From Apostichopus japonicus (lineage: Eukaryota > Echinodermata > Holothuroidea > Aspidochirotida > Stichopodidae): a stretch of 64,000 bases of DNA. Shown here piece by piece: positions 7,031 to 38,138 of the stretch. The stretch spans positions 21,102,303-21,166,302 of the forward strand of contig NC_092581.1 in the NCBI RefSeq assembly GCF_037975245.1, read 5' to 3'. A program made the position numbers and the translations under genes. Each line of letters begins with the position of its first letter. Position 1 is the first letter of the stretch. The notes under the pieces were generated by a model. It was given only the letters and a program-made list of their open reading frames with translations, was not told the DNA's origin and made no database searches.

Positions 7031-7207
7031 CATTGGCGTCAATCCAGGGGGGGGGGCGGGGGGACACGCCCCCACATTTCGATGGATGGGGGAAACAATA
7101 TCAAATGTCCCCCCCCCCCCCACACACATTTGGAAAAAGAGTAGTGTCGTGGCTCTATTTGGTAACGGCTTACACATCTCAGGATTCATAACCTCGAATA
7201 TCACTCA

Positions 7208-7540
7208 ATGTTGCTGAATGGAGAATTCCACCCAGGTCTCGTGAGTTGGTACCCTGAGCTCTCCAACAATCTTAAGCTTAGTCTGCTATTCTTTCGAGGC
7301 CAGTTCTATTCCTCGTCGGTTGAAGGGTATAGACAAATTTTCAAGTCGATGAATCCAGCGGTACGGGCTATGTTTGGTGAAGTCGAAGCTCTCTTGCGGT
7401 TGCTCCTCGTCTCCTCCGCCAGTTCGACGGAAGCCGCTCGATCTTTTAGTGCTTTGAGGCGTTTGAAGACAAGGCTACGGAGCACCATGACTCTACAGAG
7501 GCTGAACCACGTGATCGTGTTCCATGTTCACCGCCCAGGG
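7208..7540 (+). pseudogene. hAT transposase C-terminal (dimerisation) domain remnant
   Basis: The frame reads VRAMFGEVEALLRLLLVSS, then SSTEAARSFSALRRLKTRLR and LQRLNHVIVFHVHRP. This is the hATC dimerisation domain: the RSFSALRRLKT..LR.TM core is typical of hAT transposases and of ZMYM1/52KD-like relatives. Only the last ~110 residues are present, without the DDE catalytic core or BED finger, and a poly-G tract follows. The family is inferred from the motif. Confidence 0.85.
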
Positions 7541-7850
7541 ACGTTGTTAAGGGGGGGGGGTGGGGGTGTCTCACCCCCCAACTTGGTAAAACTGACGCTA
7601 GTTGGAAAATTGGAGTGCGACAGTCGGAATTTCCGACTGTCGCACTCTAGTTTATCTAGGCCTATTCATTTATCCCTGTGATTGTGCATGATATAAAAAA
7701 AAAGAAAAATTCGGTCAAAATTGACCTTTAACCTGTCATATTTACCACGTTTTCCTTGCACTTTGGGAAATTGTATCTCGCGATTCTGTACAAAACTTCG
7801 TATGATTTTGAATACTACAAAAAGAATGCGTAATAGAACTACCGTCATAG

Positions 7851-18502: not shown

Positions 18503-21500
18503 ATGCCACAAGTCAACAGGGCTTTGATGATCCAACTGGGAATTATTTTGCTAATTGTACCAGTTCAGTATTTCATAACCCAACGCTGGAAACCTGCTTC
18601 CCGTACAACACAGCAACAAAGTTTGAAAGAGTAAGTATCTGTTTTAGTTACCTTATAGCTTAGCTTCTAAAATATAGATTATGTAACTGATAGGTATCTC
18701 AGGGGATATCCTATTTGTCTGAAGTCTCTTTAGTTTTAATATCCTTGCATGTAAAATGCATAATAAAAAATGATAAACTATCATAGTTAAGTGTGCATGT
18801 AATTGCCTGCTGGGTAAACTCAAATTGCAAGCACAACAATGTTTTCTTAAGGCAGGTAAAGAAGGAGACCTATAATACTGCTTGAATTATTGTATATTAG
18901 CCTTAGAATTTGTGTCACCCAATAAAGAATTTATTGGACCTTTACATAAGTTGGAAAATATCTGATAAGTTCTATTTTATTTCAGTAATCACATTTGCCT
19001 ATATATGCTCTGTTATCCTAGGCACTTCTTTTACCACTACACAGACAAGATATATATTTATTTAAAGCTTTACACTGTGCAATGTTCATCTCTTGCTTTA
19101 TGCAGACTTATAAAGCAGCTAAAATCTTGGAAGGACAGTATTTTCTCAAAAGCAACGTGGCAAAAGTGGTTTAAGGATGCACAGAGCTATATAGTGAGTT
19201 ATAAAGATAGCGCAGTAGAGAAAGCAAGGCAATATGCAACAACGTCACCTGCACACGCGTATGAAGAGGGAGCAGAGGCAACATTGGAAGAAGCAGTTAA
19301 AAAAATTCTGAAAGAAAGAGATCCTACAGGAAATTTTGGAGGTAAACTACAGTAATCATTATCAGTAGCTCACTTTGTCTCCAGTTAATGCAAAGTATTA
19401 TTGTAACATAAATATAAAGTTTAATATAGTTTAAAGATGAAAAATCAAATTAACATAGTACAGTTATGGAAGGTACAAAACTTGTACATCTCTTTGTCGT
19501 AGCTACAACAATTGTATGTCCTGTAACTTCACTTTTTAACCCGAGGTTATGGTGTCAGAAGTGGGATGAAGACGAATGACTTAAACTATTACATATTTCC
19601 ATATTTTACCTGCTTGTAGTCGTTTGAATGACCTTCCGTGGTCAGATCCCTGTTGATACTCAGGTTACCCCAAAATTCACTTTACAATAATAAATCAAAA
19701 GCAAGGAGTATGTAAAGAGGATAAAATTCTTAATGTACATTTGAAGTTTAAAAAAATGGAGTGGTAGTTAATTCTTACAGTATGTTAAGCATGATTTACA
19801 AAATTTTACACTAATTACTGATAAAGATACAGTAGCTTCATTACAGGTTATGGAAATCTTATATTTAGAGAAAATAAAAAAACAAAAAATTCTACTAATA
19901 ACTTTTTCTTCTAGCTCAATATGACACATGTGATAAGTTTAATATATAATTACCCTAATTGTAGTGTAGATTTGAATGAAGTTCAAACTTAGAAGTATTT
20001 AGAACATTTTACATTGTACTTAGAACATTTTCTATTGTATTGTAATCCACACTTTTGGAATAATTTCCAAGGGGCCTATTTTGTGACCAAGTTTATGTCT
20101 TGTTTACTAACCAATCCATGTAGGAATTTACTTTTTTCCTTATTTACAATGTCTCTGTGTAACTTGACTGGACCATACCATGTGATAAATATACCTTTTT
20201 AAGTTGTCTGCAGGCTGTATAAAATTATAGCTGTGTACAGCTTATTAGAATGTTAACAAATATAAAATTAATGTCACCAATAAATTCCTATTTTCTGATC
20301 ACAGCTTCAGCAATCCCTAGGAATCCAAGACCAGGACACATCAAATATCGAATTGGTCAAGTCATCCGTCATAAACAGTATGGATATAGGGGAGTCATTG
20401 TAGGATGGGATGCCACTGCAAAGGTACCTTGCAAGAAATGAAAAATTGATTGAACTTCTCTCTTGCCTATCTGCACTAAAAAGCCTCGTTCGGACTGTGA
20501 TGATAAATTAACTTAAAAGTTTTGTTTTTAATTTGTTCTTTGTTTCAGTCTGTTTGAAATTGGGGAATACATTTTAATTTCGGTGATTTCTCAATCGGGT
20601 TTGTTTCCTTGGCTTTGCTAGTCTCTGCTTTTGTAAAATGTAATTGGTTTAATGTCAAAGGAACATGTCAACTGTTTCTGTTTTTATTTTGTTTTTTGGA
20701 CAATGGCATTAGTTTTCACATTTTCATAATTTAGCAAAGAATACAACCTAAGTTCAAGTTTCTAACACTATCTAACATTTGTTTTAGACATTTTCTTTTA
20801 AAAATAAAAAAACCCAACGTGTTTCTAAATCATTTGGAAGCCATAACATATGGAGGCGAAACTAATCTCAACGATTCATACTTACCTATACCAACTTTTA
20901 TTAATGCGGTGGGTTGTGAATTATGATTAGGATATTCAACCAGCTTCACTACCTTGGATAAAGGATTCATACTTAGCTATACTAACTTTTATTAATGCGG
21001 TGGGTTGTGAATTATGATTAGGATATTCAACCAGCTTCTCTACCTTGGATTAAGGATTCATACTTAGCTATACTAACTTTTATGAATGGGGTGGGTTGTG
21101 AATTACGATTAGGATATTCAACCAGCTTCTCTACCTTGGATTAAGGATTCATACTTAGCTATACTAACTTTTATGAATGCGGTGGGCTGTGAATTACGAT
21201 TAGGATATTCAACCAGCTTCTCTACCTTGGATTAAGGATTCATACTTAGCTATACTAACTTTTATTAATGCGGTGGGCTGTGAATTACGATTAGGATATT
21301 CAACCAGCTTCTCTACCTTGGATTAAGGATTCATACTTAGCTATACTAACTTTTATTAATGCGGTGGGCTGTGAATTACGATTAGGATATTCAACCAGCT
21401 TCTCTACCTTGGATTAAGGATTCATACTTAGCTATACTAACTTTTATTAATGCGGTGGGCTGTGAATTATGATAACGATATTCAACCAGCTTCTCTACCT

Positions 21501-24500
21501 TGGATTAAGGATTCATACTTAGCTATACTTACTTTTATGAATGGGGTGGGCTGTGAATTATGATAAGGATAATCAACCAGCTTCTCTACCTTGGATTAAG
21601 GATTCATACTTAGCTATACTAACTTTTATGAATGGGGTGGGTTGTGAATTATGATTAGGATATTCAACCAGCTTCTCTACCTTGGATTTCAAAACATTTT
21701 ATTGTTATTTGTTTTTCTTTTAGGCTCCGGCAAGTTGGTTGGATAAAATGCATGGGGAGCATAAACTGGTGAGATTTTGTATGTTTGAATTTTCCAAATG
21801 AGCTTTAGTAGAGTATTAATGTTAAGTACAAAATATTGTAATCTCTTTAAGATGAATTAAAGATAATATGTTCAACTCCAAAGAGGAAGCCCAATTGATG
21901 TCAGCCCTGAAACAATGCTGTCTTCTATAAATAAAAAACGTTTCCAAAACACCAGTATTTTACCAGTATTTTTCCTGTGCAAGTTGCTTCTACTTAAGAA
22001 TATTGCAGTCTGAAAGTGACTGATTTACTTCCAATATTACTGACTATTTATTACCCTTTTTACATCAGTTGAGTAGTTCTCTCTGTATCTCTGAAGTTGT
22101 TTCCTATAAGTAATTTATATATTTAATATGAAACCATGACATCAAAACTATATCGTGCAATTGGCCTTAAATATGAATCATTAATGTAGAAAACTATGGA
22201 CATTGATTTATTTGGTTTATATATTTTGTGTTTTTATTATTTATTTTGGTGGAGGAGTTCATACTCTATTGTATACTTCTTCTTCTATTAATATGTTGCC
22301 ATTTTCTTTGACATTTAAAATCCTCTTTTTCTTGCTTTATACTAATTTCCTGTTTATAAATTAATCTTTGAGTTTTGAAATTGAACCCAACAATACTTTC
22401 AGCAGAATATTCTTCCTAAAAATTCTCAATTTGCAAGCATTGCCTCCTTTGTCCGGTGTAACATTTCAATTTGGATATTGAAAGCATACACAGTCTTACA
22501 ATGGATTGTGTATTTTTGTATACATGTATGAATACTTCATTAATACTTACTAAATACTAATTTTGTAACAGCTTAAAGATACAGTCAAAGTTACTGTTCA
22601 CCTGACAAAAATATATTATATTAACAAACAATAAATAGACATAAACTAGGCAAAGATCTTAAAACATACAGTGTAAAAAAGTTTGGGGTTGTAGAAAATG
22701 AAAACGTTAAACCATATCTCCATATAATATATTGAATGTTAGAAGATACTGTAGTACGAAAGAAAATGACTGTAGAAGCAGTATATAGCTTTATAATTGT
22801 ACTGTTACAACAACCTTGAATGTGCATAGTAGTTGAAGACACTGAAGTACAATGAAAGAAAATGACTGTAGAAGCAGTATATAGCTTTATAATTGTACTG
22901 TTACAACAACCTTGAATGTGCATAGTAGTTGAAGACACTGAAGTACAATGAAAGAAAATGACTGTAGAAGCAGTATATAGCTTTATAATTGTACTGTTAC
23001 ATCAACCTTGAATGTGCATAGTACAGTAGTTGGCGGTTATGACAAAGACTGCACTAGATTTGTGTTCATACCAGGATTGGCAACATTGCTCAATCAGAGA
23101 CTGCACTAGATTTATGTTCATACCAGGATTGGCAACGTTGCTCAATCAAAGACTGCACTAGATTTGTGTTCATACCAGGATTGGCAACATTGCTCAATCA
23201 GAGACTGCACTAGATTTGTGTTCATACCAGGATTGGCAATGTTGCTCAATCAGAGACTGCACTAGATTTGTGTTCATACCAGGATTGGTGACATTGCTCA
23301 ATCAAAGACTGCACTAGATTTATGTTCATACCAGGATTGCCGACATTGCTCAATCAAAGACTGCACTAGATTTGTGTTCATACCAGGATTGGCGACGTTG
23401 ATATCAATATCATATATATCAGATATCAATGCAGTTATTCAATCAAATTGTTTTGTCATGGTGGCATTAATAGTTAGTATGCATGTTTTGATACTCTCTG
23501 ACCAGTTTTGGTCATCCTAGCATGTTTGCGTTAATTCTGATGATCTCTTAACCTGCTATTTTTACTAACCATTCTGTCTTCTACCTCTGCTCCTCTTTCT
23601 TTACTAACACTGCCTGCCAGCCTGCTGACATGCCTTATTACACTGTGCTTGTAGATATTAGTTATGAGTTTTATGAGGATGGCGCGACTGTGTATGTACC
23701 TGAAGATATGATTTCAGTTGTTACGGCGGATACCACGGTGAGTCCAAACCTGCATCATGAAATCCAGCGACCGGCTACCATGCATATTTATGCATACATT
23801 CATCATGTGAATAGTGAAACCACCATGAATTAACTCAAATAAATAGCAAACAAAACATCAAATGTTCCTTCAGCCAAAATGGTCATCTGGTGGTTCCTTC
23901 CAAGGATTGAACTAGATTATTAAATTGTTGGCCAAAGTATAAACCAATATTGGTGATATTTAGAGAGTTGTTCACAGTGGTTTCACTATAAATTGAAAGG
24001 CGGCACAAACCCAACCGTTATCTTTTGCTTATATGACAGAAGTGATTACGTAGAACAACTCCCTCCAACAGCTAAGAAAATCTGGTGCATTTTCACTATA
24101 ACTATAATTTTGTAAATCTATGATGTCATATTGCCACTATGATCAGAGACCTATTTACCTGTGTTTTTCATATAAACAGCGTTGACTCTGAAACCATTGG
24201 TCATGTTATACCTGGGTTCAATATGATGCATTCAGCAGTTTGCAAAACCTCCATTTTCAGAAACTAAACAAACATGAATAAAGTCAACCATGCAGAAAAT
24301 GAAGCGCACATGTCAAATTATTTTAGACTTGTGCAAGTCTGCTGCCTTGTGAGGTGTCAGGAACATTATAGTCTGTGATATCTCCTGAATGGATCAGATT
24401 TTCTTTGCAGTTTTGGGGTAGTTGTTCCAAACAGTAATCTCTTCTATCACATAGATCAATAATGATGGTTGGGTTCTCTCCTTTTAACATAAAATTCATC

Positions 24501-25324
24501 CGTTTCCTGTTGGTTATTTCTATCTTTAAATTAGCATTTAAGAAATCTGCCAAACTATTCTGTCCTGGTTGATGTCAGAGACCGACAGAGAGGCCAAATC
24601 ACTTATGTGGTGGAGGAAAATATAGAAATAATTGAAGATCACGAGGTAAATGAATATCAATCTATGTGTATGACATGTTGCTGTAGGAGTGATTTCTTAT
24701 CAGTGCTTCATTTGCATAACTTCTATCAACATGCTCATGAACATGATCTAAACATTTGGAGGAACCAAGGAAAATGGACAGCCAAATTACATGTTGTAAA
24801 AATGGTTTTCCCATGAGTATATTGAATATCAGGGGCACAACCACTTTACACCTCTGAATAAAATCATTGTTTCTCTTTTGTAATTATGCTATAAGATACA
24901 GTATATTGGTTTGTGTGCATCTATATTGATTAAAATTTTTAACAATCTGCCCCTCCATACCCCATTTCCACCATCCCACACCATCCACCACTTCACTGAC
25001 ATGTGCAGTATGCTATATCCCCTAGAAATAAGTTTAATTTCTCTGATTATCCCACCCTAATCTAAGCCAAAATTTTTACTGATGACCCAACTTGAATATT
25101 TTCGAAGACACAAACAGACAAAGCATTGTTTTAGTATTTGTCTACATCTAATGAGAAATATAAAATTTTAAAACTTGAAAAAATGTGATAAATCAACAAT
25201 GTCTCCATTTTTGTCTCTCATCTAGGTAAACCACCCACATGTGAAAGAGTACTTCAACGGCTTTGATGGAGTTCAGTATATAGCCAAACAGTGGTTGAAA
25301 AAAATCTATCCAAATGACCAATGA
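18503..25324 (+). CDS. Membrane-anchored YccV/HspQ-like domain protein with duplicated exon
   Basis: Exons 18503-18630, 19106-19341, 20305-20423, 21724-21768, then 23621-23737 (5a) or 24535-24645 (5b), then 25226-25324; all GT-AG, phases 2,1,0,0,0. Isoforms are 247 aa (5a) or 245 aa (5b). An in-frame TAA at 18488 precedes the ATG. Residues 9-25 are hydrophobic (IQLGIILLIVPVQYFI), a likely signal anchor or N-terminal membrane helix. Residues 44-121 are amphipathic and charged (KDSIFSKATWQKWFKDAQ). From about 133 comes a YccV/HspQ fold: HIKYRIGQVIRHKQYGYRGV, IVGWDATAKAP, then P-Y-x-VLVD, and a tail HPHVKEYFNGFDG. The domain is the one at the C-terminus of FBXO21 and in bacterial HspQ, but no F-box is present. 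Function is unknown; the domain call is from motifs. The 3' UTR probably reaches an AATAAA near 26007. Confidence 0.82.
20873..21688. repeat. 91-bp tandem repeat in intron 3
   Basis: About nine copies of a 91-bp unit beginning gattcatacttagctatact and containing aattatgattaggatattc, only 35 bp upstream of exon 4 of the YccV-like gene. Copies differ at a few positions. Confidence 0.95.
22740..23026. repeat. 96-bp tandem repeat in intron 4
   Basis: Three copies of a 96-bp unit containing aaagaaaatgactgtagaag and acaaccttgaatgtgcatag; copies 2 and 3 are almost identical. Confidence 0.93.
23045..23399. repeat. 52-bp tandem repeat in intron 4
   Basis: About seven copies of a 52-bp unit containing gactgcactagatttgtg and cataccaggattgg, directly after the 96-bp array and 220 bp before exon 5a. 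Confidence 0.95.
23621..23737 (+). CDS. Alternative exon 5a of the YccV-like gene
   Basis: 39 codons, phase 0 at both ends, acceptor tgcctgccag, donor GTGAGT. It encodes PADMPYYTVLVD, then EFYEDGATVYVPEDMISVV. It aligns with exon 5b (P-Y-x-VLVD ... TYVVEENIE). Either exon joins exon 4 and exon 7 in frame. It supplies a middle strand and loop of the domain, so including both would put two copies of that element into one domain. Confidence 0.8.
24535..24645 (+). CDS. Alternative exon 5b of the YccV-like gene
   Basis: 37 codons, phase 0 at both ends, acceptor ctttaaattag, donor GTAAAT. It encodes LRNLPNYSVLVDVRD and ITYVVEENIEIIEDHE. The TYVxEEN motif is closer than exon 5a to the usual YccV/HspQ and FBXO21 sequence, so 5b may be the ancestral form. 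The intron between 5a and 5b is 797 bp. Confidence 0.8.

Positions 25325-31368: not shown

Positions 31369-38138
<6,770 letters not shown>

What the first reader, a model, noticed from the sequence alone, without database searches (positions are those of the whole stretch)
23621..24645. Two homologous, phase-matched exons in a YccV/HspQ-like gene: mutually exclusive splicing inside a single domain
Exons 5a (39 codons) and 5b (37 codons) both start and end in phase 0, both have good splice sites, and both encode the same structural element (P-Y-x-VLVD ... TYV/VYV-x-E-x-x-I/M). Each alone completes the domain with exon 7; both together would duplicate an internal strand. Exon choice would swap the surface built by the VLVD strand and the E-rich loop in a membrane-anchored protein. 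I know of no described alternative-exon system for this domain, but that is my own knowledge, not a search.
Basis: partly seen in the sequence, partly recalled or inferred. Interest (0 to 1): 0.78.

Follow-up and report, generated by a model that had tools for sequence, protein, structure and literature searches.

The report
Swappable twin exons in YccV gene
A gene of an unnamed, probably animal genome carries two old, related, interchangeable exons for the same piece of a small YccV/HspQ-type domain, so the cell can probably make two versions of one protein; this is a well-known kind of gene arrangement, here in a domain for which I found no earlier report.

Summary
Exons 5a (23621-23737, 39 codons) and 5b (24535-24645, 37 codons) are AG/GT-bounded, phase 0/0 and homologous (11 of 30 aligned residues; 0 of 20,000 shuffles as good). 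Either alone completes a YccV-like domain: PF08755 scores 59.4 bits with neither, 90.0 with 5a, 109.2 with 5b; in a domain-only construct 5a gives 92.0 and 8 decoys 60.8-73.3. Third codon positions agree only as often as chance, second positions 22 of 30: an old duplication kept by selection on protein. Mutually exclusive use is the likeliest reading (about 0.7) but is not shown: no transcripts or related animal genomes were available. I found nothing in the DNA that enforces exclusivity: both exons are multiples of three, the intron between them is 797 nt and holds a transposon-like element, sites look U2-type, and the intron pairings tested did not beat shuffles. The 5a acceptor is unusual (98-nt AG-free zone, two TACTAAC motifs, 37-nt pyrimidine tract), which may mean control by RNA-binding proteins. 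The exons swap a beta-hairpin whose loop is acidic/aromatic in 5a and basic in 5b. Mutually exclusive tandem exons are a known class; this is a probable new instance.

The parts
18503..18630 (+). coding exon 1: start codon and a hydrophobic segment (residues 7-25), probable membrane anchor
   Evidence: open frame and donor gtaagt; top 19-residue hydropathy window 2.23 at residue 7; start codon and anchor are inferences
19106..19341 (+). coding exon 2: charged linker
   Evidence: DNA match in the genome only at this locus
20305..20423 (+). coding exon 3: first strands of the YccV-like domain
   Evidence: PF08755 positions 1-29, 42.8 bits
21724..21768 (+). coding exon 4, phase 0/0, 45 nt
23563..23620 (+). 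unusual acceptor region of 5a: TACTAAC at 23563-23569 and 23602-23608, a 37-nt pyrimidine-rich tract beginning 52 nt before the exon, within a 98-nt zone free of AG
23621..23737 (+). alternative exon 5a (39 codons): hairpin with acidic/aromatic loop, net charge of the exon -8
23998..24496 (+). inverted-repeat (MITE-like) element in the intron between 5a and 5b; ends approximate
   Evidence: dispersed matches across the genome to this stretch; inverted arms 24008-24049/24434-24475 and 24067-24091/24388-24412
24535..24645 (+). alternative exon 5b (37 codons): hairpin with basic loop, net charge of the exon -4

Best explanation
An old tandem duplication of one internal exon gave two interchangeable versions of a beta-hairpin of a YccV/HspQ-type domain, in a gene that also encodes a probable N-terminal membrane anchor. 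Each mature mRNA most likely contains one of the two, giving isoforms of 247 (5a) and 245 (5b) residues that share the core strands and differ in the loop between them (acidic and aromatic in 5a, basic in 5b), hence perhaps in partner choice. Shown: the exons, their phase, homology, fit to the domain, and past selection on protein. Inferred: that one and only one is used; that the choice is made by RNA-binding proteins acting on the acceptors (the long pyrimidine tract and two branch-point-like motifs of 5a against the low-scoring acceptor of 5b); and that folding failure removes both-in and both-out products.
For: PF08755: 59.4 bits with neither exon, 90.0 with 5a, 109.2 with 5b, each as one stretch; domain-only constructs 92.0 and 111.2 against 60.8-66.6 for 6 intron decoys and 72.0-73.3 for 2 shuffles of 5a. 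NCBIfam yccV model: 56.2 with neither, 84.2 with 5a, 100.5 with 5b. Codon positions: 22 of 30 identical at position 2 (shuffled mean 9.3, 0 of 10,000 as high), 8 of 30 at position 3 (shuffled mean 8.0); simulated drift without selection reached both at once in at most 0.1% of runs at any of 7 distances. Two exon candidates (open, multiple of three, 60-200 nt, sites at least as good as theirs) in 21769-25225 and 8 on the whole + strand (thresholds were set from the pair, so this shows mainly that there is no third). Skipping both would drop about 33 profile positions and two strands of a barrel of five or six strands as described for POLDIP2 (PMC8138528, PMC7647994, passages). Human tandem duplicated exon substitutions are mostly ancient and keep key structural residues (PMC9741552, abstract and parts).
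Against: No transcripts. Double inclusion and double skipping both stay in frame, so decay of frameshifted mRNA cannot police them. The intervening intron (797 nt) is too long for steric blocking and carries an inserted element. Tested intron pairings did not exceed shuffles. In human only 1,399 of 6,541 such candidates were validated as mutually exclusive, 1,741 remained open, and many similar neighbouring exons are not spliced this way (PMC5740500). Both acceptors score low. 5a alone is under the Pfam cut-off (13.2 of 22.8 bits), was not reported in the genome search, and the 5a form matched HspQ among solved structures only up to the first strand of the exon (E 0.058).
Confidence: 0.7

Rival explanations
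1. Two independent cassette exons, or both constitutively included: the protein (284 residues) carries a duplicated hairpin, the extra copy being an extension of the domain.
For: Both exons are multiples of three in the same phase; the 5a donor is the best-scoring of the gene's six (top 0.23% of GT); I found nothing that prevents 5a-5b joining; PF08755 gives two stretches on the joined protein, 115.8 bits in sum.
Against: Each exon separately completes the domain in one match over positions 1-99; both acceptors score below those of the other four exons scored. That a second hairpin would not fit a small barrel is inference.
Confidence: 0.17
2. One exon is the working one (5b is closer to the family) and the other is a relic that is no longer, or hardly ever, spliced.
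For: 5b alone passes the Pfam cut-off (31.8 bits), 5a alone does not (13.2). With recent loss of selection an exon can stay open: 75% of runs at distance 0.1. The 5a acceptor scores low in the last 20 nt.
Against: 5a adds about 30 bits in context and beats all 8 decoys by at least 18 bits, has the best donor score of the gene and a long pyrimidine tract; drift without selection since the duplication is very unlikely under the model, though recent decay is not excluded.
Confidence: 0.11
3. Mutually exclusive splicing enforced by competing intronic RNA pairings (docker/selector), a special case of the best explanation.
For: Such mechanisms exist in other genes (PMC5740500 section and PMC9013439 passages); a strong hairpin forms between the arms of the inserted element (window 23990-24680, z -3.3, 0 of 20 shuffles as stable).
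Against: Five pairs of intron stretches: 4, 39, 55, 55 and 32 of 60 shuffles paired as well (a crude full-length duplex fold; of intron 4 only the last 300 nt were tested). The exon 5b and 5a neighbourhoods fold no better than shuffles (z -0.66 and +1.43). The strong hairpin is explained by the element's inverted arms.
Confidence: 0.08

Closest known systems
Mutually exclusive tandem duplicated exons (human catalogues PMC5740500 and PMC9741552; single cases such as OGDH, SNAP25, ketohexokinase, Dscam, seen in listings)
   Same: Adjacent homologous internal exons of similar length and equal phase, within a folded domain; core kept, loop changed; old duplication.
   Different: FBXO21 and POLDIP2, the YccV genes asked for, occur 0 times in the main text of both catalogues (supplements not readable). 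Splicing pattern untested here.
YccV/HspQ domain family (PF08755, TIGR02097): bacterial HspQ, POLDIP2, FBXO21
   Same: Domain match well over cut-off for either isoform. Nearest solved structures by sequence, all weak: HspQ 5ycq (E 0.024 with 5b, 0.058 with 5a) and, with 5b only, POLDIP2 6zlx and 6z9c (E 0.093, 0.11).
   Different: No other Pfam family over its cut-off in the full protein (DUF3139 at 18 bits is under its 27.3), so no DUF525; probable N-terminal membrane anchor; two exon versions of one hairpin.
OGDH exons 4a/4b with distant branch points (PMC7969005, abstract and one section read)
   Same: A branch-point-like motif well upstream of an acceptor with a pyrimidine tract after it, here before 5a.
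   Different: In OGDH the distant branch points lie near the donor of the intervening intron and keep it short and free of transposons; here the intervening intron is 797 nt and holds an inserted element.

Membership tests
YccV-like domain (PF08755) | profile score over the curated cut-off (22.8) across the domain | tested here: met
   90.0 (5a) and 109.2 bits (5b), positions 1-99 of 101
YccV-like domain (PF08755) | SH3-like barrel fold | not tested
POLDIP2 | C-terminal DUF525 domain | tested here: not met
   no DUF525 match at E up to 1 in the four isoforms scanned
FBXO21 | F-box and Transglut_core2 domains (recalled) | tested here: not met
   neither matched at E up to 1 in the four isoforms scanned; Transglut_core2 also not found in the genome (exon-split matches can be missed)
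Mutually exclusive exons | adjacent, homologous, similar length, same phase, compatible sites | tested here: met
Mutually exclusive exons | junction reads bridging each exon, none joining the two | not testable with these tools
   no RNA-seq available
Exclusivity by frameshift | joint inclusion shifts the frame | tested here: not met
   117 and 111 nt, both multiples of three
Exclusivity by steric blocking | donor to branch point under about 50 nt | tested here: not met
   intron 23738-24534 is 797 nt; the only YTRAY motif in the AG-free zone of 5b is 48 nt before the exon; branch points not mapped
Exclusivity by U2/U12 mixture | one minor-type intron | tested here: not met
   donors GTGAGA, GTGAGT, GTAAAT by reading; minor consensus recalled, no profile run
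Exclusivity by docker/selector RNA pairing | strong competing intron pairings | tested here: inconclusive
   none above shuffles, but most of intron 4 was not tested and conservation could not be used

The most novel reading that the evidence does not exclude
A membrane-anchored relative of the YccV protease-adaptor proteins switches partner or client by exchanging, through mutually exclusive splicing, the hairpin whose loop corresponds to the POLDIP2 beta4-beta5 loop (which carries a putative PCNA-binding motif): an acidic/aromatic version and a basic version. It would be the first splice-switched YccV domain that I could find.
Probability: 0.3. Interest if true: 0.55.

Novelty: new member of a known kind. 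Interest (0 to 1): 0.4.

Why it matters
If true, it offers a natural two-version experiment on a domain whose role in animals is poorly understood: comparing the two forms would show which surface of a YccV domain picks its partners. The locus is also a test of how exclusivity is kept when frame, intron length and spliceosome type do not enforce it.

Tried and rejected
Third exon copy: none (which replaces, whose two-row profile was off by one column; the codon counts used the register and stand). Second YccV gene or retrocopy that would record a spliced form: PF08755 reported only this locus (2 matches, exons 3 and 5b); a protein search with the 5a form gave 6 matches here and 2 weak ones on C17 (E 2.55 and 3.44); the spliced 5b coding sequence matched only its own 6 exons. 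Relatives in bacterial/archaeal genomes (5b form) and viral contigs (5a form): 32 and 5 candidate stretches, none confirmed, so no dating by orthologues. RNA pairing: no signal in what was tested. A nested pairing around 5b (inverted pairs 24448-24466/24650-24668 and 24514-24527/24618-24631) looked tempting, but 24440-24680 folds ordinarily (z -0.66, 50 of 200 shuffles as stable). A zebrafish gene name that I recalled as a possible orthologue gave no paper and is not used. A search for mutually exclusive exons in echinoderms and amphioxus matched 4,834 papers on any two terms; none of the 12 shown holds the exon term, so it tells nothing. Searches on YccV, HspQ, POLDIP2 and FBXO21 listed 4 and 7 papers; of these I opened two (PMC8138528, PMC7647994). 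PMC5224494 was seen as abstract only and not used. dN/dS could not be computed: the synonymous distance was undefined. No fold prediction was run.

Full report
What is there. On the + strand lies a gene with seven coding exons (18503-18630, 19106-19341, 20305-20423, 21724-21768, 23621-23737, 24535-24645, 25226-25324). With one of the two middle exons it encodes 247 (5a) or 245 (5b) residues: a hydrophobic N-terminal segment (best 19-residue window 2.23 at residue 7), a charged linker, and a C-terminal YccV-like domain. The window lies in an unnamed 671.6-Mb genome of 35 contigs; I did not identify the organism, and 'animal' is inferred.

The observation. Exons 5a and 5b have the stated coordinates, are open in phase 0 at both ends, and have AG/GT borders. 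Their translations align over 30 residue pairs with 11 identities and a 2-residue gap; the score (49) exceeded all 20,000 shuffles (maximum 47). Pairwise the similarity is modest: among 2,783 six-frame segments of the window each exon finds the other as its best match after itself, at E 0.20 and 0.16. With PF08755 the protein scores 59.4 bits with neither exon, 90.0 with 5a and 109.2 with 5b; alone, 5b scores 31.8 (cut-off 22.8) and 5a 13.2, and 5a was not reported in the whole-genome search. As a control, six open intron stretches put in place of 5a gave 60.8 to 66.6 bits and two shuffles of 5a 72.0 and 73.3, against 92.0 for 5a and 111.2 for 5b in the same domain construct. The NCBIfam yccV model agrees: 56.2 with neither, 84.2 and 100.5. 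So 5a is a real, more diverged version of the element, and 5b the more conservative one. No third copy was found in the window (one search had used a profile off by one column).

Age and selection. Codon position 3 agrees at 8 of 30 (shuffled mean 8.0), position 2 at 22 of 30 (shuffled mean 9.3; none of 10,000 shuffles as high), position 1 at 15 of 30. Of 11 identical residues 3 use the same codon. Synonymous change looks saturated while the protein pattern is kept. A simple simulation of a copy drifting without selection reached at least 11 identical residues together with at most 8 identical third positions in no more than 0.1% of runs at any of seven distances. It does not exclude a recent loss of selection in one copy. 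The date is unknown: scans of prokaryote genomes and viral contigs confirmed no relative, and no related animal genome was available.

Splice signals. With human-like matrices that I wrote from recall, the donors rank in the top 0.23% (5a) and 1.80% (5b) of 3,835 GT in the window; the acceptors rank at 8.0% and 19.5% of 3,611 AG, while exons 2, 3, 4 and 7 rank at 0.55-0.86%. Six acceptors are too few for a firm test. The acceptor of 5a is unusual rather than merely weak: 98 nt without AG (the longest of the six; 5b 78, the others 36-68), a 37-nt pyrimidine-rich tract that begins 52 nt before the exon, and two TACTAAC motifs whose sixth base, A, lies 53 and 14 nt before the exon. TACTAAC is not over-represented in the window as a whole (12 matches on both strands, shuffled mean 9.8, 26 of 100 shuffles with at least 12), and 7 of the 10 + strand copies lie in a minisatellite of intron 3, so two copies around this one tract are suggestive only. 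Long tracts with distant branch points regulate exclusive exons in OGDH (PMC7969005, abstract and one section read), with a different layout.

How exclusivity could be kept. [quoted passage not shown] Here both exons are multiples of three, the intervening intron is 797 nt, and the donors look of the major type, so the first three do not apply. The intervening intron contains a dispersed inverted-repeat element at about 23998-24496; a related copy sits in an intron-like stretch of another gene (L002). It argues against any mechanism that needs a short intron. Full-length duplex folds between five pairs of intron stretches were matched or bettered by 4, 39, 55, 55 and 32 of 60 shuffles; of intron 4 only the last 300 nt were included. 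The exon neighbourhoods fold ordinarily (z -0.66 and +1.43); the one strong fold (z -3.3) is mainly the element's own hairpin. What remains is control by RNA-binding proteins at the acceptors plus loss of misfolded products; that is inference.

What the switch would change. The residues shared by 5a and 5b lie mostly in two predicted strands (Y-x-VLVD and YV-x-E-x-x-I); the loop between them differs: ISYEFYEDGAT (net -3) in 5a, VRDRQRGQI (net +2) in 5b (loop limits chosen by me). A weak phmmer alignment places the 5b strand on the POLDIP2 strand that ends in ARDC (E 0.093); the 5a form gave no POLDIP2 match. By the strand numbering of PMC8138528 (passages) I take this to be beta4, so the swapped loop corresponds to the POLDIP2 beta4-beta5 loop, which is longer than in HspQ, missing from the crystal structure, and contains one of three putative PCNA-binding motifs. 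That correspondence is my reading, not a structural alignment. YccV-like domains of POLDIP2, HspQ and plant ClpF are linked to regulated proteolysis (PMC7647994, passages), so an adaptor role at a membrane is a reasonable guess, no more.

How sure. In human, 1,399 of 6,541 candidate exons passed RNA-seq validation, 1,741 stayed undecided, and 29 of 158 annotated cases proved not to be exclusive. That base rate is low. I raise it to about 0.7 because the pair completes a single compact domain, not a repeat, and both copies bear marks of selection. Full-text searches for YccV with mutually exclusive exons (0 papers), with alternative splicing (4 papers: three on POLDIP proteins and one on a fish virus, by title), and a combined search (129 papers with at least two of four terms; none of the 10 listed contains YccV) found no earlier report; the library holds open-licence papers only. 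The result is a probable new instance of a known class, of moderate interest.

Noticed in passing
window 20873-21688: A 91-bp minisatellite (9.0 copies, 96% matches) ends 35 nt before exon 4; it contains 7 copies of TACTAAC, a branch-point-like motif.
   Followed up: no
window 22758-23023 and 23043-23400: Two further minisatellites (96-bp and 52-bp units) lie in the intron before exon 5a.
   Followed up: no
window 23998-24496; L002 about 1480-2030: Dispersed inverted-repeat element of roughly 0.5 kb with diverged copies on many contigs; the L002 copy lies near an exon that reads, by eye, like a DHHC palmitoyltransferase.
   Followed up: partly
G000 C8:12834688-12836228 and C4:7684185-7686214: About 50-60 bp from near the element's right end recurs in tandem (spacing about 82 and 104 bp), apparently satellite arrays that share this segment.
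   Followed up: no
window 31372-31686 and 35179-36072, - strand: Two open frames match opposite ends of the RsmB/F methyltransferase family just under its cut-off (25.4 and 26.2 against 27 bits): probably one NSUN-type gene on the minus strand (10 of the 127 long open frames scanned).
   Followed up: no
window 7166-7678: Open frame with a sub-threshold match to the hAT transposase dimerisation domain (17 bits, cut-off 21.4).
   Followed up: no
G000 C1:15352496-15354108 and 15384601-15386046: Two DUF525 (ApaG) gene copies about 32 kb apart, and a further, best-scoring match on C15.
   Followed up: no
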